The notes beneath the pieces were generated by a model that did no database searches, had not been told where the DNA came from, and saw nothing but the letters and a program-made list of their open reading frames with translations. A DNA stretch of 64,000 nt from Streptomyces sp. 840.1 (GTDB lineage Bacteria > Actinomycetota > Actinomycetes > Streptomycetales > Streptomycetaceae), in the NCBI RefSeq assembly GCF_003751445.1, contig NZ_RJUU01000001.1, positions 1,431,001 through 1,495,000 of the forward strand, in the 5' to 3' direction. This document shows, in pieces, positions 8,135-19,677 of this stretch. The translations under genes and the position numbers were made by a program. The first letter of the stretch is position 1, and the number at the start of each line of letters is the position of its first letter.

Positions 8135-8623
8135 TCAGCTCCGCGCGCCCACGACCGCCGCGCGCTCCACGAGCACGAACCAGACGGTCTTCGCGGTCCG
8201 CACCCGCCCGCCGCGCGTCGTGGTCCCCCAACGGTCGGTCAGGCTCTCCACGATGACGAGCCCGCGCCCGCTCTCCGCGTGTGGCGCGTATGGCGTGTGT
8301 GGCACATGTGGCGCTACGCCCGGCTTCGGCAGCCGGGCCGGTTCGTCGTCGGTCACGTAGACCATCACCTGGCGCCGGTTCACCGTCACGTCGACCCGGA
8401 TGCGGGCCGACCGCGTGTGGCAGTGCGCGTTGGACACCACCTCGCTCACGCACAACCGGGCGTCGTCGGCCAGCCCGGGGTGCTCGGTGGTCCGCAGCAG
8501 CGCTCCCACGAAATCCCGCGCGATGCGGGGCGCGGTGGGGGTGTTCGGCGCGACGAGCCGGTAGCGCTCGCCGCGCTGCGGGAGGTACGGGGCGGGCGCG
8601 GGCGGAACGGATACGGGGGTCAT
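8135..8623 (-). CDS. ATP-binding regulatory protein (anti-sigma-type HATPase)
   Basis: 162 aa with a single GHKL/HATPase_c_2 fold. The N-box is LCVSEVVSNAHCH (normally SELVTNAVRH), and the G-box region is AESGRGLVIVESLTDRWG. Such RsbW-like proteins are very numerous in Streptomyces and act as anti-sigma or partner-switch kinases, often beside XRE/DUF397 genes as here. The second His/Cys replacement in the N-box (NAHCH) is unusual. Divergent from the XRE gene at 8886. Confidence 0.85.
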   Translation of the reverse strand: MTPVSVPPAPAPYLPQRGERYRLVAPNTPTAPRIARDFVGALLRTTEHPGLADDARLCVSEVVSNAHCHTRSARIRVDVTVNRRQVMVYVTDDEPARLPKPGVAPHVPHTPYAPHAESGRGLVIVESLTDRWGTTTRGGRVRTAKTVWFVLVERAAVVGARS

Positions 8624-8780
8624 GGCACGGTCTCCCTACGGGTGTGGGTCTCCGGTACGTCGCCGGACCGTTCCGGTGGACCGTGGCATCGGCCGGGGCC
8701 CGTACGAGGTCAACTCGATTGAGGGTGGCTGCACTTCGGAGCACCGAGCCGTTGCCGGTCGATACCGTCGGACGCTAGGG

Positions 8781-8811
8781 CACAACATTGGGACGGCGCA
8801 ACAATGGGACG
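8781..8811. promoter_or_regulatory. direct-repeat operator candidate before the XRE gene
   Basis: Two direct copies of a 15-bp element, CACAACATTGGGACG (8781-8795) and CGCAACAATGGGACG (8797-8811), offset 16 bp. They lie 75-105 nt upstream of the XRE start. The same element recurs inverted at 10007-10034. Probably the binding site of the XRE protein encoded alongside; that is inference. Confidence 0.55.
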
Positions 8812-8885
8812 GCCGTAGCACCCATACGAGTGGACCAGCGGCACAGTGGCGCGGCACACTCGTACCCGCACGAAAGGGAGGGCCG

Positions 8886-9734
8886 ATGCCGCCAAGGAGC
8901 TACCCGACCGCCAGACAGAAGCGATTGGGCGCGGAGCTTCGCAAGCTGCGCGAGCGCGCCGGAATGTCCGGGAGCGAGGCCGCCGCGTTCCTGGGTGGCG
9001 AGCGCGCGCAGATCAGCCACATCGAATCCGGTCGCTACGGCGTGAGCGACCAGCGCGTACGTCGCCTGGCCGCCCATTACTCGGCCGGTGACAAGCACCT
9101 GGTGGACGCACTCGCGAGCATGGCCGAGGAGCGCACGAAGGGATGGTGGGACGAATACCGCGGCATACTCTCGCCGGGATTCCTGGACCTGGCCGAGCTG
9201 GAGCACCGCGCCACGTACATCCGCGCCATTCAGATGCTGAACATTCCGGGAATCTTCCAGACAGAGGCGTACGCACGGGATCTGATCCGCAGCGGCGTCT
9301 CCGACCTTCCGGCCGCAGAGCTAAACGCTCGTGTCGAGCACCGCGCGCGACGTCGGGACATCTTCGATCGGCCCGCCCCGACCTCGTTCGAGGCATTCGT
9401 CCACGAGGCCGCGCTCCGCATGCGCTACTGCGGCACCGGCATCATGCGCGAACAGCTCAACTTCCTTCACGAGGCTTCCACCTGGCCATCCGTGACGATC
9501 CGCGTCATCCCGTTCACAGCGCAGATCACCGGTTCGGCGCATTCGATGCTGTACGCAGGGGCCAGCATTCCGGCGCTCGACACCGTGCAGATCGACAGCG
9601 CTTTCGACGCCGGATTTCTGGACGCCGAAGCCCAGCTCGCCAGATACCGAGAACTGCTTGATTCCATCGAGTCGATCTCCCTCGGCCCGGAGGAATCGGC
9701 TCAGTTCATCCAACTCATCGCACACGAAATGTGA
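8886..9734 (+). CDS. XRE-family regulator with DUF5753 domain
   Basis: 282 aa. HTH at residues ~14-68 (LRKLRERAGMSGSEAAAFLG, then AQISHIESGRYGVS). The C-terminal DUF5753 region is recognised by MLNIPGIFQTEAYARDLI and later VTIRVIPFTAQITGSAHSM. This is the WhiJ-like class that pairs with a DUF397 protein. The ATG at 8886 follows a GGGAGG ribosome-binding site; the frame is open upstream across the repeat pair, so a longer start is unlikely. Stop overlaps the DUF397 start by 4 nt. Confidence 0.92.
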   Translation: MPPRSYPTARQKRLGAELRKLRERAGMSGSEAAAFLGGERAQISHIESGRYGVSDQRVRRLAAHYSAGDKHLVDALASMAEERTKGWWDEYRGILSPGFLDLAELEHRATYIRAIQMLNIPGIFQTEAYARDLIRSGVSDLPAAELNARVEHRARRRDIFDRPAPTSFEAFVHEAALRMRYCGTGIMREQLNFLHEASTWPSVTIRVIPFTAQITGSAHSMLYAGASIPALDTVQIDSAFDAGFLDAEAQLARYRELLDSIESISLGPEESAQFIQLIAHEM

Positions 9735-9946
9735 GTCGAAGCGACATGACCGACGCAATCAACTGGCAGAAGTCGTCATTCTCGGGAGCGGACAATAACC
9801 AGAGCTGCATCGAGCTGGCCCCCGTGGACGGTGCGATCAAGATGCGCGAGAGCGATGACCCCGACCTGGTCGTCACGACGAGCGTCGCCAAGCTCCGAGC
9901 CTTCGTCCTGGGCGTCAAGGCCGGCGAGTTCGACCACCTGATCTGA
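9731..9946 (+). CDS. DUF397 protein (partner of the XRE regulator)
   Basis: 71 aa (or 66 aa from the ATG at 9746, MTDAINWQKSSFSG). Shows the DUF397 pattern W-x-KSSFSG...C-IELA...I-MRES...F-x-x-G--- with L-AFVLGVKAGEFD. Members act as antagonists or partners of adjacent XRE/DUF5753 proteins. Translationally coupled to the gene before it and followed directly by a hairpin terminator. Confidence 0.88.
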   Translation: MSRSDMTDAINWQKSSFSGADNNQSCIELAPVDGAIKMRESDDPDLVVTTSVAKLRAFVLGVKAGEFDHLI

Positions 9947-12158: not shown

Positions 12159-13109
12159 TCAGTGCGCGATGCCGTCGATCAGTTCACGCGCGCCCTGGCG
12201 CAGCAGGCTGACGGCGACGGAGGTGCCGAGGGTCGCGGGGTCCAGGGGGCCCGCCCACTCGTGGGCGTTGAGGACGGTCTTGCCGTCGGGGGTGAACACC
12301 TTCGCCCGGAGGGAGAGTTCACCACTCCCCTCGACCTGGGCGTACCCGGCGATGGGGCTGTTGCAGTGCCCCTGCAGGACGTGGAGCAGCATGCGCTCGG
12401 CGGTGGTCTCCCGGTGGGTGGAGGCGTCACCGAGCTCGCTGATGACGTCGATGAGTGCGGTGTCGTCCTCGCGGCACTGCAGGGCAAGGACTCCCGCGCC
12501 GATGGGCGGGCACATCGTCTCGGGCGACAGCACCTCGGTGATCACGTCGGTGCGGCCGATCCGTTCGAGCCCGGAGAGCGCCAGGAGCAGCGCGTCGGCC
12601 TCGCCGGCGGCGAGCTTCTCCAGGCGCCGGTTGGCGTTGCCGCGCATCGGTACGCAGTCCAGGTGCGGGTGTGAGGCGGCCAGCTGGGCGACGCGCCGGA
12701 CCGACGAGGTGCCGACGCGGGTGCCGGCCGGAAGCTCGTCGAGACGGAGGCCGCCCGGGTGGATGAGCGCGTCCCGGATGTCGTCACGGGCGAGGAACGC
12801 GGCGAACGTCGTACCGGCGGGCAGCGGCCGGTCGGCCGGGATGTCCTTGACGCAGTGCACCGCGAGGTCCGCCTCGCCCGCGAGGAGCGCCTGGTCGACC
12901 TCCTTCGTGAACGCGCCCTTGCCCTCGACCGCCGCGAGGTCGCCCATCCACTTGTCGCCGGTCGTCCTGACGGGGACGACCTCGGTGGCGGTGTCCGGGC
13001 AGCGGGCGGCCAGCAGGGCGCGGACGCGCTCCACCTGGGCGAGGGCCATGGGCGAATCGCGGGACACGATGCGGATGAGATTCAGTTCAGAGGCGGGCAC
13101 AGCGCCCAC
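12159..13109 (-). CDS. hemC: hydroxymethylbilane synthase (porphobilinogen deaminase)
   Basis: Condenses four porphobilinogen units into hydroxymethylbilane in tetrapyrrole synthesis (cytosol). 316 aa. Features: [10 protein letters not shown] near 88-97, SSVRRVAQL (135-143), RGNANRRL (156-163) and the dipyrromethane-cofactor cysteine C249 in [11 protein letters not shown]. All expected residues are present, so it should be active. It stands alone, whereas streptomycetes normally keep hemC with hemA/hemD; this may be a second copy. The start could be the ATG at 13109 or a nearby downstream GTG. Confidence 0.93.
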
Positions 13110-13231: not shown

Positions 13232-14547
13232 TCATCCGGCTCGCAGACGGTCGAGGAAGTCGGCCACACCCTCGACCTGTCGGTAGGGCTCAAAGGCCGG
13301 AACGAGTTCACGGACCAGGGTGACGCACCGCCCGGCCCCGATCCTGGTGGCGAGGTCAAGTGATTCGGTGGTGACGGCAAGGGCCTGTTCGATGTCGTCG
13401 GACCGAAGGAATCCCTTGGCCTGGTAGGTCAAGAAGATGCCGCGCGTCTTGTCCCTGGCCCTCGGTAGGAGAGCCAGGCCCTCGGTCATCTTGGTCCGAG
13501 CTTCGCCGGTCCGGCCGAGGTCGAGCAGGCACTGTCCCGAATCCACCGCCAGGTCCGCCGGACTCATCCATGCGCACCAGCCCGGTGCGGGATCGACCGC
13601 AGGCGCCGCCAGTTCGGTCTCGGCCCGGGACAGGTCCCGGTAGCAGTCGGTCCGCCGACCGAGGGCCGCGTAAGCCCTGGCCCTGCGCACGAACAGCAGC
13701 GACCGGGCGGTGGGTGGCCGGTGCTCGAGATCGCGTGGCCGAGCTGTTCCACGGAGACAGCAGGCATGCCCAGCCAGTTGGACTGGTAGGCGAAGTCGGA
13801 GAGCACCCCGGCGCCGAAGTCTCGGTCACCTGCGGCGTGGGAGGCGTGCAGGGCCGCTGTCCAGAGCTTGCCTGCCGCGTAGTGCTTCCCCTGATCGAAG
13901 CGGTACCAGCCGCAAGTGGTGGACAGCGCGGCGGCCAGGGAGTGCAGACGCATGCCGGTCCGTTCGGAGCACCGGCCGCCGTCGATCAGGTCGGTGACTG
14001 TGGCCAGGTGGGCATCCGCGAGCTTGATTGTGTGCTGGCGCTGTTCGGTGGGAAGGGCCGTCAGCTTCGCGCTGGTGTCCTCCAGCCAGTCGACGAGTTC
14101 GGTGTCGACAGCCGTCCGCCCGCTGAGTGCGGCGCTGAGGCGGCCCGTCTCGATCGTGGCCCACTGGGCGGCGAGGCCGGCCAGCGCAGCCGCGCTGTAG
14201 GTCATGAAGCTGCGACGGTCCATGGCTGCTTTCTGTGCGTCTCGAAGTACGTGAACCGGGTACGCCGTCCCGAGTGGCATGGGGAGGTCCCGGCCGGGAA
14301 GCCAGTCGGGCCAGCCGCACAACTCCACTTCGCTCAGGGGGATGCCCAAGGCTTCGGCTATCAGGATCTGTGAGTCGGGGCCGGGCTTCTTGCGCCCGTT
14401 CTCCCAGCGGCTGACGGCTGTCTTGTCCGTACCGGAACGGAGTCCGTGTCTGCGGGCGACCCGGTCGAGGTGTGCGGCCAGGTCGCTCTGCGACCACCCG
14501 CGCAGTTCGCGGGCGTAGGCGAGGGGGTGCCGGATCGGATCGTCCAC
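13232..14547 (-). pseudogene. XRE/TPR regulator of the RiPP cluster, frameshifted
   Basis: From the GTG at 14547 (VDDPIRHPLAYARELRGWSQ): HTH at ~9-62 (SDLAAHLDRVARRHG, KTAVSRWENGRKKPGPD), then a TPR-like helical region (DRRSFMTYSAAALAGLAAQW onward). Near 13718-13723 the frame breaks: one frame ends VEQLGHAISSTGHP and the next continues ARSLLFVRRARAYAALGRR to a natural end at 13232. One missing base in GGGCGGTGGGTGG restores a ~438-aa protein. It may be a real mutation or a sequencing error. Divergent from the ATP-grasp RiPP genes, so probably their regulator. Confidence 0.75.
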
Positions 14548-14568
14548 GCACCAATTCCACCATCGACA

Positions 14569-14584
14569 GTATCCGCAGGGATAC
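14569..14584. promoter_or_regulatory. operator candidate between regulator and RiPP genes
   Basis: Perfect inverted repeat GTATCC-GCAG-GGATAC, 22 nt upstream of the regulator start and about 215 nt upstream of the precursor ATG. A plausible site for the XRE protein; not otherwise supported. Confidence 0.4.
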
Positions 14585-14799
14585 GGCGAGTGAGGGCGGG
14601 ACAACCCCGGGACTACACATGGGACCTGTTCGGCGGCCGGTCTCTGGGCTGTACTCAACACACATCGACAAGTTCCCGCATGCAGCGGAAGGACACTGCC
14701 ATGAAACGACGCCCCGAAGCCATCGGCCTGGACCCCGCGACGATCGGAGACCACTTGCCGGGCCTGGTCGCAGCGAGCCAAAGGATCGAGGAGACCCCG

Positions 14800-15066
14800 A
14801 TGTCCATCCCCGTCCAGCCGTGGGGCATCAACCGCCTGGCCCTCTACCCGAACACCGTGCGGTACCCGTTCACCCGGACCGAGATCGACCCCGAGACGCA
14901 GGCGACACGCTACTTCGACCCGGCGGGCCGGGCCGTCGACATGAGTAGCGCACACGGCACCAATCAGTCGACGGCCTCACCGACCGCGACCGGTTCCGAC
15001 GGCGGCGGCTCGCAGCCGCCCGCTCCCGCGGACTCGGACGCGCTCGAAGACCACGTGCCGGACTGA
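14800..15066 (+). CDS. tgmA: ATP-grasp-modified RiPP precursor
   Basis: 88 aa from the ATG at 14800, preceded by GAGGAG at 6-7 nt spacing; an ATG at 14701 with GGAAGG would add 33 residues. The conserved leader block PWGINRLALYPN... leads to TEIDPETQATRYFDPAGRAVDM, the family signature of ATP-grasp RiPP precursors. The C-terminal half is Ser/Thr/Asp/Gly-rich (SSAHGTNQSTASPTATGSDG, ending DALEDHVPD), supplying hydroxyl and carboxyl side chains for ester linkage. One nt separates it from the maturase. Confidence 0.85.
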   Translation: MSIPVQPWGINRLALYPNTVRYPFTRTEIDPETQATRYFDPAGRAVDMSSAHGTNQSTASPTATGSDGGGSQPPAPADSDALEDHVPD

Positions 15067-15067
15067 C

Positions 15068-16033
15068 ATGACCGACTCGCCGGTTCTCGTCATCACCGCA
15101 CTCGGTGACGTCACAGCGGATCTGGTGCTGAGTGAGCTGTACGGCCGGGGCATCCCGGCCGTACGGCTCGACCCCGCAGTCGACTTCCCCGAGCCGGCCC
15201 GCATGAGCGTCCGGGTCGGGGCAGCCTCGTTCACGGGGAATCTGGCCACAGCTTCCAGACACGTCGAACTCTCCGCCGTCCGTTCGGTCTACTGGCGGCG
15301 CCCCACGCCCTACGGCGACCCGAGGCGGAGCGAGTCGCCGCCGCAGCGGTTCGCCCTCGAACAGTCCCGCGCCGGATACACGGGAACGCTGACCGCGCTC
15401 CCCGGAGCGCTGCACGTCAACCACCCCGTCCGTAACCGAGCCGCCGACCACAAGTCCGGCCAGCTCGGCACAGCCGCTCGCCTCGGCTTCTCTGTTCCCG
15501 AGACCCTGATCACGAACGTTCCGCGGCACGCCCGCGAGTTCGCCGCCGAGCACGGGACCGTGATCTACAAACCGGTTCATGGCGTGCACCTCACAGGTGA
15601 GGACGGCCGTAACCGGACCATCTGGGTTCGTCCCGTGCACGCCGACGAACTGGACGACTCGATTGCCCTGTGCCCCCACCTGTTCCAAGCCTGTGTCCCG
15701 AAGATCGCGGACATCCGGCTCGCCGCCGTCGGTGACAAGTTGTTCGCCACACGGATCGACACCACCGGAGATCACTTGGACTGGCGGCAGGATCAACGTC
15801 TGATCACCTGCTCGCCGATGCCCATCCCGTACACGGTCCGCGAGGGCGTGGAGTACTTCCTCCGCGCGTTCGGGCTCACCTTCGGCGCCTTCGACTTCGC
15901 GCTCGACGGAAACGGCCGATGGTGGTTCCTCGAATGCAATCCGAACGGGCAGTGGGCGTTCGTCGACGAGCCCACAGTCCGGGACATCGCGAGCGCGCTC
16001 GCTGACATCCTCCAGAAGGGCTCCCCCACATGA
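15068..16033 (+). CDS. tgmB: ATP-grasp ribosomal peptide maturase
   Basis: 321 aa, MvdD/MdnC-like ATP-grasp ligase. Such enzymes activate Asp/Glu carboxylates of the precursor and join them to Ser/Thr/Lys side chains. N-terminal pre-ATP-grasp region 1-105 (YWRRPTPYG at ~78-86), central lysine region GTVIYKPVHGVHL, and Mg-binding ECNPNGQWAFVD near the C-terminus (~288-299), with FGAFDFALDGNGRWWFLE before it. Fits the SAV_5884-type maturase family. Stop overlaps the methyltransferase ATG by 4 nt. Confidence 0.92.
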   Translation: MTDSPVLVITALGDVTADLVLSELYGRGIPAVRLDPAVDFPEPARMSVRVGAASFTGNLATASRHVELSAVRSVYWRRPTPYGDPRRSESPPQRFALEQSRAGYTGTLTALPGALHVNHPVRNRAADHKSGQLGTAARLGFSVPETLITNVPRHAREFAAEHGTVIYKPVHGVHLTGEDGRNRTIWVRPVHADELDDSIALCPHLFQACVPKIADIRLAAVGDKLFATRIDTTGDHLDWRQDQRLITCSPMPIPYTVREGVEYFLRAFGLTFGAFDFALDGNGRWWFLECNPNGQWAFVDEPTVRDIASALADILQKGSPT

Positions 16034-17190
16034 CCCCTGACAACTCCGCAGCCCTGCGCCGCCGCCTCGTCGAAGAGCTCGTCCACGAAGACCTGCTGCA
16101 CGACTCGGACGTGCTCCGCGCGGCCGGGGCCGTACCGCGCGAGACGTTCCTCGGTCGCGCGGTCTACCTGCCGAGCGACCCGCCGGGTGTCACCGTGTGG
16201 ACGCCCACTCGGCGCGCCGACGTTCCCGCCGAAGAGTGGATGCGCCTCACCTACCGGAACGCGACGTGGGTGACGCAGATCGACGGAGTGCTCGCGGAGG
16301 ACGCCGCCGGACCGGTCACCGGCGGCACGCCGACGTCGTCCTCGACCCTCCCCGGGCTGATCCTTTGGATGATCGAGCAGGCCCGGGTCGCGGCCGGCAC
16401 CCGGGCCCTGGTCATCGGCGCCGGTACGGGGCTTTCGACCGCCTACGTCTGCGAGATCGCGGGCGAGGACACCACCACCGCGATCGAGACCGACCCCGGC
16501 GTCGCGGAGCGGGCTCGCGCAGCCCTCGCCGAGGCCGGGTACGAGCCGACGCTGATCACAGGCGACGGGCTGCGCGGGCATGCCGACCGGGCACCGTACG
16601 ACGTCGTCCTCGCGTTCTGCTCCATGCGCCATGTCCCGTACGGCCTGCTCCGGCAGGTCAGGAAAGGGGGAACCCTGCTCGTCACGCTGGCCGGGTGGGG
16701 GTTCGGGCACGGACTGGTGCTGCTCATCGCCGACGGGGAGGGCGGAGCGCGCGGCCGGTTCCTGCCCGGGTACACCTCGTTCATGATGGCCCGCACACAC
16801 GACCGGCCGCCGCACGGCCCCTTCGAGCTGCTGCCGGGCGAACAGCGGCCGAGCAGGATCGACCCCGCCCTGCTCGACGACTGGAACGGGCGGTACGTCG
16901 CCCAGCTCGCCGCGCCCTCGGCCGAACGGCTCGGCGCGGGGGACGACCAGATCCTGCTCGACGTCGCCACAGGCTCGCAGGCGCGCACCCGGGCTGCCGA
17001 GGGCGGCGACGGGTGGACCGTGATCCAGCGCGGCCCGCTCAAGCTGTGGGACGCCGTCGAGGAGTCGGTCGCCCGCTGGCAGGCCCACGGTTCGCCGCAC
17101 CTGTCCGAGTTCGGTATGACGATCACACCCCATGCCCAGCGAGTGTGGCTCGGCACTCCGGACGGTCCGGGCTGGATGCTGCCCGTCTAG
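16030..17190 (+). CDS. tgmC: PIMT-like methyltransferase of the ATP-grasp RiPP system
   Basis: 386 aa. Protein-L-isoaspartate O-methyltransferase-like Rossmann domain with the SAM loop ALVIGAGTGLSTAYVCEIAG (~129-148), followed by a ~190-residue C-terminal extension. In related clusters such as that of fuscimiditide, the enzyme methylates an Asp of the ester-crosslinked peptide, which then closes to an aspartimide. Here it probably acts on the product of the adjacent maturase. Translationally coupled to it. No export or protease gene follows. Confidence 0.88.
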   Translation: MTPDNSAALRRRLVEELVHEDLLHDSDVLRAAGAVPRETFLGRAVYLPSDPPGVTVWTPTRRADVPAEEWMRLTYRNATWVTQIDGVLAEDAAGPVTGGTPTSSSTLPGLILWMIEQARVAAGTRALVIGAGTGLSTAYVCEIAGEDTTTAIETDPGVAERARAALAEAGYEPTLITGDGLRGHADRAPYDVVLAFCSMRHVPYGLLRQVRKGGTLLVTLAGWGFGHGLVLLIADGEGGARGRFLPGYTSFMMARTHDRPPHGPFELLPGEQRPSRIDPALLDDWNGRYVAQLAAPSAERLGAGDDQILLDVATGSQARTRAAEGGDGWTVIQRGPLKLWDAVEESVARWQAHGSPHLSEFGMTITPHAQRVWLGTPDGPGWMLPV

Positions 17191-17571: not shown

Positions 17572-17871
17572 TCAGGCCGGCGGCCCATGCACGACGAGCC
17601 GGTTCTGCTCTCCGTCAAAGACTCCGGCCAAGACATCGGCGTCCAGCCGGTCCCCACCGAAGAGCCCCCGCTGGTCGACGTGCACGATCAGAATGTCGTG
17701 GCTGTCGATCACCTCAGAGATGCCCCGAGCCTCGATCGTGTCCGACCATGCGTCCAGGTTCCGGCCGAACCACTCCGGCAGTCCGCACGGCTCGCTCACC
17801 GCGTCCCAGAAGTCGTTGAGTGTCTCGATCAACCGACCACGCAGGTCAACGACCAACTCGCTATCAGTCAT
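17572..17871 (-). CDS. barstar-family RNase inhibitor-like protein
   Basis: 99 aa. Barstar fold signature: LNDFWDAVSEPCGLPEWFGR at ~18-37, NLDAWSDTIEARG, then the strand ILIVHVDQRGLFG. Barstar homologues bind and block barnase-like ribonucleases in the cytosol. No cognate RNase is visible nearby, so it is an orphan immunity or antitoxin-like gene. It lies between a transposase remnant and a gene fragment, which suggests it was carried in. Confidence 0.8.
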   Translation of the reverse strand: MTDSELVVDLRGRLIETLNDFWDAVSEPCGLPEWFGRNLDAWSDTIEARGISEVIDSHDILIVHVDQRGLFGGDRLDADVLAGVFDGEQNRLVVHGPPA

Positions 17872-17946
17872 CGCAGCAGACTATCCAGCCCCCACCACGA
17901 GGCATTTACCGGTCAGAGAGACAGGCTCCAGGAGGGGGCTCGAAGA

Positions 17947-18153
17947 CCGCGCTGCGTGGCGAACTTCACGACCTTCGGGTTGCCGATCAGCTTCACGAAG
18001 GCGCGACCCTTCGTCGTTCAGCAGCCGCCGTAGGTGCCCTTGAGCACCCTTTGGGTGCTTGTTCAGGACCAGTTCGCGCTGCGCCGGGGTCGCACGGGCG
18101 TGCACGTGCACGATGACGTCCAATGCCATCTCGCCCGACTCCATGGCGTACAC
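17947..18153 (-). pseudogene. partial, decayed copy of the downstream prenyl reductase gene
   Basis: Minus-strand reading starts YAMESGEMALDVIVHVHARATPAQRELVLN, matching YAMESGQIAADVIVQAHARSTPAQRELALN in the intact gene (18296-19579). It then diverges by frameshift. At the DNA level 17947-18151 aligns with about 18419-18622, including CATGACCTTCGGG/CACGACCTTCGGG and ACGAAGGCGCG. Only a third of the gene's 3' part is present. Substitutions and indels show the copy is not new. Confidence 0.8.
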
Positions 18154-18295
18154 CGCACCTCACAAAGCGGTTCGACGGACTTCGCCGTTCTGGGCGTCAG
18201 GGTTTCGGCCCGCCTCGATTTCCATGCAGCCCACCGTCCTGCTGCCGCTCGCAGCTTCCGTCGAAGAGGCCGCCGAGAAGGACACAGGCAGATTC

Positions 18296-19579
18296 TCAGG
18301 CCTTCGGCGCCACCTTGGAGAGGCCGTTGATGATGCGGTCCATCGCGTCGCCGCCCGTCGGGTCGGTGAGGTTGGCGAGCATCTTCAGGGTGAACTTCAT
18401 CAGCAGCGGGTGGGTCAGGCCGCGCTGGGTGGCGATCTTCATGACCTTCGGGTTGCCGATCAGCTTCACGAAGGCGCGGCCCATCGTGTAGTAGCCGCCG
18501 TAGGTCTCCTTGAGCACCTTCGGGTAGTTGTTCAGGGCCAGTTCGCGCTGGGCCGGGGTGGAGCGGGCGTGGGCCTGGACGATGACGTCGGCGGCGATCT
18601 GGCCCGACTCCATGGCGTACGCGATGCCTTCGCCGTTGAACGGGTTGACCATGCCGCCCGCGTCACCGACGAGCAGCAGGCCCTTGGTGTAGTGCGGCTG
18701 GCGGTTGAAGGCCATCGGGAGGGCGGCGCCGCGGATCGGCATCGTCATGTTGTCCGGGGTGTAGCCCCAGTCCTCGGGCATGGACGCGCACCAGGCCTTG
18801 AGGACCTCGCGCCAGTCCAGCTCCTTGAAGGCGGCGGAGGAGTTGAGGATGCCGAGGCCGACGTTGGAGGTGCCGTCGCCCATGCCGAAGATCCAGCCGT
18901 AGCCGGGCAGCAGCCGGTCCTCGGTGCCCCGGCGGTCCCAGAGTTCCAGCCAGGACTCCAGGTAGTCGTCGTCGTGGCGGGGCGAGGTGAAGTACGTACG
19001 GACCGCGACGCCCATCGGGCGGTCCTCGCGGCGGTGCAGGCCCATCGCGAGGGAGAGCCGGGTGGAGTTGCCGTCGGCGGCGACGACGAGGGGGGCGTGG
19101 AAGGTGACCGGGGTCTTCTCCTCGCCGAGCTTCGCGTGCACGCCGGTGATCCGGCCGGTGCGGGGGTCGGTGATCGGGGCGCCGACGTTGCAGCGCTCGT
19201 ACAGCCGCGCGCCGCCCTTCTGCGCCTGGCGGGCCAGCTGCTCGTCGAAGTCGTCTCGCTTGCGGACCAGGCCGTAGTCCGGGTAGGAGGCGAGATCCGG
19301 CCAGTCCAGCTGGAGCCGGACACCGCCGCCGATGATGCGCAGGCCCTTGTTGCGGAGCCAGCCCGCCTCTTCGGAGATGTCGATGCCCATGGAGACGAGC
19401 TGCTTGGTGGCGCGCGGGGTGAGGCCGTCGCCGCAGACCTTCTCGCGGGGGAAGGCGGTCTTCTCCAGGAGGAGGACGTCCAGGCCCGCCTTGGCGAGGT
19501 AGTACGCGGTCGTGGAGCCGGCTGGGCCTGCCCCGACGACGATCACATCCGCACTGTGTTCGGACAGGGGCTCGGTCAC
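18296..19579 (-). CDS. geranylgeranyl reductase-family FAD oxidoreductase (probable menaquinone tail reductase)
   Basis: 427 aa from the GTG at 19579 (reads MTEPLSEHSADVIVVG), with GGGAGA upstream. N-terminal FAD site VIVVGAGPAGSTTAYYLAKA, family motif EKVCGDGLTPRATK (~45-58), and second FAD motif LLLVGDAGGMVNPFNGEG (~285-302). Relatives reduce isoprenoid double bonds; the mycobacterial homologue MenJ saturates the menaquinone side chain. Position next to menG supports that role here. It faces the GNAT gene divergently and a partial copy lies 140 nt downstream. Confidence 0.85.
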   Translation of the reverse strand: MTEPLSEHSADVIVVGAGPAGSTTAYYLAKAGLDVLLLEKTAFPREKVCGDGLTPRATKQLVSMGIDISEEAGWLRNKGLRIIGGGVRLQLDWPDLASYPDYGLVRKRDDFDEQLARQAQKGGARLYERCNVGAPITDPRTGRITGVHAKLGEEKTPVTFHAPLVVAADGNSTRLSLAMGLHRREDRPMGVAVRTYFTSPRHDDDYLESWLELWDRRGTEDRLLPGYGWIFGMGDGTSNVGLGILNSSAAFKELDWREVLKAWCASMPEDWGYTPDNMTMPIRGAALPMAFNRQPHYTKGLLLVGDAGGMVNPFNGEGIAYAMESGQIAADVIVQAHARSTPAQRELALNNYPKVLKETYGGYYTMGRAFVKLIGNPKVMKIATQRGLTHPLLMKFTLKMLANLTDPTGGDAMDRIINGLSKVAPKA

Positions 19580-19677
19580 GGTCGGATCTCCCGAAGACTC
19601 GAAATCGCGTGCCGCGCGGCACATGTCCCGTGCAGTCTATGGGGGCCTGCTGATCAACCTCCCGAAGGGCTCCCCAC

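What the first reader, a model, noticed from the sequence alone, without database searches (positions are those of the whole stretch)
14547..17190. ATP-grasp RiPP (graspetide) cluster with a PIMT-like methyltransferase
Seen: a precursor with the PWG...EIDPETQATRYFDPAGR block, an ATP-grasp maturase and a PIMT-like methyltransferase, tightly coupled (1-nt gap, 4-nt overlap). Known: in related systems the ligase makes side-chain esters or amides and the PIMT enzyme converts an Asp to an aspartimide. Inferred: this strain makes a crosslinked, aspartimide-bearing peptide. The precursor's C-terminal half (S/T/D/G-rich, ending DALEDHVPD) is the likely core. No dedicated protease or transporter is seen, so the role may be intracellular.
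Basis: partly seen in the sequence, partly recalled or inferred. Interest (0 to 1): 0.78.

Follow-up and report, generated by a model that had tools for sequence, protein, structure and literature searches.

The report
Crosslinked-peptide gene cluster, known type
A Streptomyces three-gene cluster that very probably makes a small peptide pinned into a hairpin by four ester bonds with a modified aspartate in its loop; it is a new member of an already described peptide family whose biological role is still unknown.

The parts
14800..15066 (+). precursor peptide gene, most probable start (Met34 of the 121-aa ORF; 88 aa)
   Evidence: TIGR04186 and PF14408 over cut-off, scored on the 121-aa form; substitution pattern and GGAG before the ATG; start shared with five relatives
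14701..14799 (+). in-frame upstream extension (codons 1-33), probably untranslated 5' region, possibly coding
   Evidence: no third-position excess of substitutions against L002; kept open in P0002-P0004
14818..14826 (+). leader recognition motif PWG (residues 40-42)
   Evidence: PWG in nearly all precursors printed (PWA in L014, PWD in L077; P0011 and P0016 have PWA); probable counterpart of the RPFG motif of fuscimiditide (PMC13003496 passage)
14881..14931 (+). conserved leader block EIDPETQATRYFDPAGR (residues 61-77)
14959..15063 (+). core hairpin, residues 87-121: four donor Thr (87, 91, 95, 97), loop 98-110, four acceptor Asp (111, 113, 117, 121)
14998..15003 (+). Asp100-Gly101, predicted aspartimide site in the loop
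   Evidence: D followed by G or S lies near the middle of each of the 84 cores used, though that motif is short and L015 and L029 have it without a ladder; it was part of the selection pattern, so its invariance there is no evidence; Asp-Gly is the methylation site of the four characterised relatives (PMC13001092)
15068..16033 (+). ATP-grasp graspetide synthetase (maturase)
   Evidence: TIGR04187 377.5 bits; PDB relatives 9bou, 7m4s, 5ig9, 5ig8, 7mgv, 7drm; FDF (275-277), E289 and N291 invariant in 15 maturases
16030..17190 (+). PIMT-like peptide L-aspartyl O-methyltransferase with C-terminal RiPP domain
13235..14547 (-). divergent XRE-TPR regulator; reading frame interrupted near 13711-13714 relative to the 438-aa ORF of L002; role in the cluster not shown

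Best explanation
A group 13 graspetide (graspimiditide) biosynthetic operon. Shown here by sequence: family matches of all three proteins, operon order, conserved enzyme and substrate motifs, and a conserved mirror-symmetric set of Thr and Asp in the core. Inferred from characterised relatives: the maturase binds the PWG leader segment and uses ATP to activate Asp side chains, joining them to Thr side chains as four nested esters (T97-D111, T95-D113, T91-D117, T87-D121; in 88-aa numbering T64-D78, T62-D80, T58-D84, T54-D88), perhaps from the loop outwards as in amycolimiditide (the fuscimiditide ligase has no fixed order). The methyltransferase then recognises the stapled hairpin, not the linear peptide, and methylates Asp100 (Asp67 in 88-aa numbering), which cyclises to an aspartimide and may later hydrolyse to isoAsp. 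An unlinked host protease would remove the leader. Biological role unknown; a secreted signalling or antagonistic peptide is only a guess.
For: Family profiles. Operon coupling. A methyltransferase match in 77 of the 80 related loci kept (best 80 of 164 found); of the other three, L002's held DNA ends 110 nt after the maturase match. T91, T95, T97, D111, D113, D117 and D121 in 28 of 28 unique loop-13 cores, T87 in 25 of 28. One register (i+j=208) holds all four pairs; it carries 4.32 T/D cells per sequence, and the best other register from 202 to 214 carries 2.00. In the window alone, 4 T/D rungs were reached in 0.44% of 20,000 half-preserving shuffles. In 84 unique cores the mean best ladder is 3.63 rungs against 2.36 shuffled (largest of 300 shuffled means 2.54); in 13 cluster representatives 44 rungs against 28.8 shuffled, 0 of 2,000 reaching it. 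Published fuscimiditide links T7-D18 and T3-D22 have the same property, i+j=25 (PMC12291112 passage). Maturase and methyltransferase motifs and fold. Order of links and need for a crosslinked substrate from PMC13003496, PMC12291112 and PMC13001092.
Against: No mass or expression data. TIGR04188 is 0.2 bits under its cut-off. If Ser and Glu count as donors and acceptors, the window's ladder is no better than shuffles (fraction 0.78). The parallel register is enriched too (42 against 31.4, 0 of 2,000), because spacings of 2 and 4 recur; only the window (4 to 3) and L004 (5 to 4) of 13 representatives discriminate, both for antiparallel. Individually only 42 of 84 cores fall under a 0.05 shuffle fraction. 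The 28 cores were picked with the pattern [SA]D[GS]GG and a fixed tail length, so conservation of positions 99-103 there is built in. L015 and L029 have related maturases (62%, 60%) but no clear ladder and no methyltransferase in the DNA held. The predicted 13-residue loop is longer than the 10-12 stated for graspimiditides (PMC12291112).
Confidence: 0.88

Rival explanations
1. Same operon type, but with a different or incomplete link pattern: for example only two or three esters, Glu116 or a Ser used, a shifted register, or a fifth ester to the C-terminal carboxylate.
For: The relative SsfA carries five esters, the fifth postulated to the C-terminus (PMC10787088 and PMC13001092). Ser90, Ser93 and Glu116 are available. 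The sister clade adds a T89-D119 rung.
Against: Glu116 is not conserved (E 20, P 4, D 3, S 1 of 28), and the partners of Ser90 and Ser93 at i+j=208 are His118 and Leu115. Position 208-122 is Gly86, so no Thr mirrors a point beyond the C-terminus. Asp121 is itself C-terminal and mirrors Thr87.
Confidence: 0.25
2. The methyltransferase yields an isoAsp peptide as the functional product; the aspartimide is only an intermediate.
For: SsfM gave a mixture of isoAsp and Asp, and aspartimides of fuscimiditide and amycolimiditide hydrolyse mainly to isoAsp (PMC10787088; PMC13001092).
Against: Three of the four characterised relatives were purified as aspartimides (PMC13001092). Sequence cannot tell the two apart.
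Confidence: 0.4
3. The cluster is silent or decaying: the neighbouring regulator has a broken reading frame, so no product is made.
For: The XRE-TPR frame is interrupted relative to L002.
Against: All three biosynthetic genes are open and keep residues invariant among relatives. A regulator homologue is found within the held flanks of only 7 of 80 related loci, L002 itself included and the other six at 24-29% identity, so it is not a fixed part of the cluster. A sequencing error is possible.
Confidence: 0.12

Closest known systems
Group 13 graspetides / graspimiditides: fuscimiditide, amycolimiditide, albusimiditide, SsfA(BM) (PMC13001092, PMC12291112, PMC10787088; parts and passages read)
   Same: precursor, ATP-grasp ligase and PIMT homologue in one cluster; stem-loop core with Thr donors N-terminal and Asp acceptors C-terminal of a loop holding Asp-Gly
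   Different: predicted loop of 13 residues rich in Gly and Pro, against the 10-12 stated in PMC12291112; rung spacing 4-4-2 on the donor side (T87, 91, 95, 97) mirrored as 2-4-4 on the acceptor side; four predicted links, the number published for amycolimiditide
Sister Streptomyces cores L004-L009, L011, L012, L014, L083, L085, P0018 (genome and protein scans, not characterised)
   Same: same loop length; shared positions 91, 95, 97, 100, 111, 113, 117, 121
   Different: an additional T89-D119 pair, five rungs in all (nine of these in the tree)
Microviridin-type ligases (PDB 5ig9, 5ig8, 7m4s)
   Same: ATP-grasp ligase family, aligned over nearly the whole maturase
   Different: [quoted passage not shown] no PIMT partner is mentioned in the passages I read. 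That 5ig8 and 5ig9 are microviridin ligases is recalled; the PDB names them ATP grasp ligase
Imiditides / pamtides (PMC13001092)
   Same: PIMT homologue with extra C-terminal domain and WXXXGXP
   Different: those act on linear or zinc-folded peptides, the cluster being precursor plus PIMT homologue
Thermotoga maritima PIMT 1DL5
   Different: 17% identity; rmsd 4.8 there and TM-score 0.54-0.56 by query length in Foldseek, so the arrangement of the parts may differ; named as a protein-L-isoaspartate methyltransferase, not a RiPP enzyme

Membership tests
Group 13 graspetide (graspimiditide) | precursor of the ATP-grasp-modified RiPP family with PWG/RPFG-type leader motif | tested here: met
   TIGR04186 53.5 bits over cut-off 25; PWG at residues 40-42
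Group 13 graspetide (graspimiditide) | ATP-grasp ligase of the TIGR04187 subfamily with intact active-site residues | tested here: met
   377.5 bits over cut-off 350; YKP, FDF, E289 and N291 invariant in 15 aligned maturases; that these are active-site residues is recalled, not from a call
Group 13 graspetide (graspimiditide) | adjacent PIMT homologue of the TIGR04188 type | tested here: inconclusive
   379.8 bits against a curated cut-off of 380, so formally 0.2 bits under; E 1.6e-113 over profile positions 1-362 of 363; 4-nt overlap with the maturase
Group 13 graspetide (graspimiditide) | core with Thr donors, a loop holding a methylatable Asp, then Asp acceptors | tested here: met
   controls and weak points in the Against line
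Group 13 graspetide (graspimiditide) | Thr-Asp esters and aspartimide actually formed | not testable with these tools
   needs co-expression and MS
RiPP-associated PIMT (PAMT) | SAM motif GXGXG | tested here: met
   G130, G132 and G134 invariant in 23 aligned methyltransferases
RiPP-associated PIMT (PAMT) | extra C-terminal domain with WXXXGXP | tested here: met
   W350 invariant, G354 and P356 in 90% or more of 23; AlphaFold model (pLDDT 86.8) aligned to 1DL5 from residue 9 to 376. The model's element order after residue 270 is strand-helix-three strands-helix-three strands, close to but not the same as the strand-helix-four strands-helix given in PMC10787088
Imiditide / pamtide (PIMT as sole maturase) | no primary cyclising enzyme beside the PIMT | tested here: not met
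   an ATP-grasp ligase gene overlaps the methyltransferase gene

The most novel reading that the evidence does not exclude
The crosslinks of this whole peptide family follow one sequence-readable positional code: Thr i is joined to Asp j with i+j constant, the predicted loop may vary from 6 to 15 residues without disturbing it, and whole rungs are gained or lost as pairs (T89/D119 present together in the sister clade, both replaced in the window's clade). The window then encodes a four-rung staple around an unusually long Gly/Pro loop, and products of uncharacterised members can be predicted from sequence alone.
Probability: 0.6. Interest if true: 0.4.

Novelty: new member of a known kind. Interest (0 to 1): 0.24.

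Why it matters
The cluster adds a member of a family for which PMC13001092 names the link to biological function as the bigger open challenge. Its use is as a clean test: the core gives an exact, falsifiable link map and mass series, and a sister clade differing by one predicted rung offers a natural comparison of ring number, methyltransferase recognition and activity.

Tried and rejected
Search of the last 41 residues against PDB sequences at E up to 10: no match, so the published graspimiditide structures were not reached by sequence. Two key papers (PMC10993234, PMC10078976) are not held, so I could not check whether this core type is one of the eight published core clusters. The precursor on plasmids: 2 records, at 36% and 35% identity. 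The idea that the upstream XRE-TPR regulator belongs to the system: a homologue was found in 7 of 80 loci, L002 itself included, so not pursued. A Ser/Glu-inclusive ladder: not distinguishable from shuffles. The coupling of 89 with 119 (12 both, 1 T only, 0 D only, 15 neither of 28) follows a split between two sister clades in the maturase tree, which holds 9 of the 12 and 4 of the 15, so one event may explain it and it is weak evidence by count.

Rows dropped before counts. One search kept the best 80 of 164 loci. Of these 80, no precursor was extracted from 4 (L016, L053, L055, L061). L011 and L012 were lost to a pattern but included. Of L083-L111, 14 of 29 were not extracted. L098 was dropped from the shuffle test, leaving 84 of 85 unique cores. 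L015 and L029 were kept and have no clear ladder. The 28 unique cores (from 34 rows) were selected by the pattern [SA]D[GS]GG followed by a fixed tail.
Full report
The three genes are at 14701-15066, 15068-16033 and 16030-17190 on the plus strand with the stated spacing.

Identity. NCBIfam gives TIGR04186 (53.5 bits, cut-off 25), TIGR04187 (377.5, cut-off 350) and TIGR04188 (379.8, cut-off 380, formally 0.2 bits short). Pfam gives PF14408 for the precursor and PF01135 for the methyltransferase. The genome, a Streptomyces judged by its relatives, holds one TIGR04186 match, one TIGR04187 match and one near-full-length TIGR04188 match, plus five weak ones to the last. In one search, 112 of 295 genomes of the same genus, drawn evenly from a larger group and counting this one, had a match to the precursor at E up to 0.001. 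The type is published: PMC8939145 lists the TIGR04188 methyltransferase among the proteins most often found with ATP-grasp loci (717 occurrences; passage); [quoted passage not shown] PMC13001092 reviews four characterised members (parts 1-3 of 5 read).

Start codon. Against L002 (maturase 91% identical), codons 1-33 of the 121-aa frame differ at positions 1/2/3 as 10/5/6, codons 34-121 as 10/5/13. The first stretch shows no coding signature; GGAG precedes ATG 14800 in both, and five homologues start there. I take the 88-aa form as probable. The counts are small, P0002-P0004 keep the longer frame open, and an SD-like GGAAGGA lies before ATG 14701 too.

Core logic. In fuscimiditide, Thr7 joins Asp18 and Thr3 joins Asp22 (PMC12291112 passages), that is i+j=25 for both. 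In the window, T87, T91, T95, T97 and D121, D117, D113, D111 all sum to 208. In 28 unique cores picked for an [SA]D[GS]GG loop and the same tail length, the seven others are invariant and T87 is T in 25, S in 2, N in 1; Asp100 is fixed there by the selection itself, with Gly after it in 27 and Ser in 1. The same arrangement with other spacings and predicted loops of 6 to 15 residues appears in most cores examined: 82 of 84 have three or more rungs, although three rungs alone are not rare by chance. Mean best ladder 3.63 rungs against 2.36 after shuffling each half (84 cores; largest of 300 shuffled means 2.54), and 44 against 28.8 for 13 representatives, 0 of 2,000 shuffles reaching it. Weak points: a parallel pairing control is also enriched (42 against 31.4), only 2 of 13 representatives discriminate (both for antiparallel), half of the cores are not individually significant, and allowing Ser and Glu removes significance for the window alone. 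Nested pairing therefore rests on the characterised relatives together with the window's asymmetric spacing, not on statistics alone.

A sister clade carries a fifth pair, T89-D119, where the window's clade has mostly Gln and Val. Both sides differ together, but the maturase tree shows one split, so this may be a single event; the tree holds 9 of the 12 cores with the pair. The published five-ester SsfA (Asp81-Gly82-Asn83, Gly77-Thr78, fragment ending at 97, four Asp and no Glu in the last 12; PMC10787088 parts 1-2 of 5) resembles the L057-type core in these few positions; its full sequence was not seen.

Mechanism and prediction. Leader-guided ATP-dependent esterification of four Thr/Asp pairs (-72.04 Da), then SAM-dependent methylation of Asp100 on the stapled hairpin, aspartimide formation (-90.05 in all) and possible hydrolysis to isoAsp (-72.04). 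That the methyltransferase needs the crosslinked substrate is published for relatives (PMC13001092, PMC10787088). Links form in strict order from the loop in amycolimiditide but in any order with the fuscimiditide ligase (PMC13003496, PMC12291112 passages), so the order here is open. Leader removal, export and role are open too, and the absence of a protease and transporter beside the genes says nothing about an intracellular role, since the native protease is not determined for any graspimiditide (PMC12291112 passage).

Verdict. A well-supported new member of a known kind. I did not find the i+j rule spelled out in the passages I read; nested stem-loop links are published. The paper most likely to discuss core classes was not held, so I make no claim of priority.

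Noticed in passing
window 13235-14547 (-): XRE-TPR regulator whose reading frame is interrupted near 13711-13714 relative to a 438-aa ORF in L002: frameshifted gene or sequencing error.
   Followed up: partly
window 12162-13109 (-): A second, divergent porphobilinogen deaminase (hemC) paralogue, 39% identical to the other match in this genome; part of a homologue (residues 227-316, 90% identity) also lies beside the cluster in L002.
   Followed up: partly
L015 and L029: Maturases 62% and 60% identical to the window's, with PWG-type precursors but no methyltransferase found in the DNA held and no T/D ladder in the core: a possible PIMT-free branch with another core type.
   Followed up: partly
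window about 17934-18360 (-): Two pieces resembling the C-terminal part of the neighbouring FAD-dependent oxidoreductase gene 18299-19624 (39% and 74% identity), looking like a decayed partial duplication.
   Followed up: no
window 17575-17871 (-): Barstar-like protein (PF01337) downstream of the cluster; no partner looked for.
   Followed up: no
window 8622-9943 (+): XRE-DUF5753 and DUF397 pair about 5 kb upstream; PMC13097080 reports such pairs with some group 11 and 13 graspetides, but here other genes lie between.
   Followed up: no
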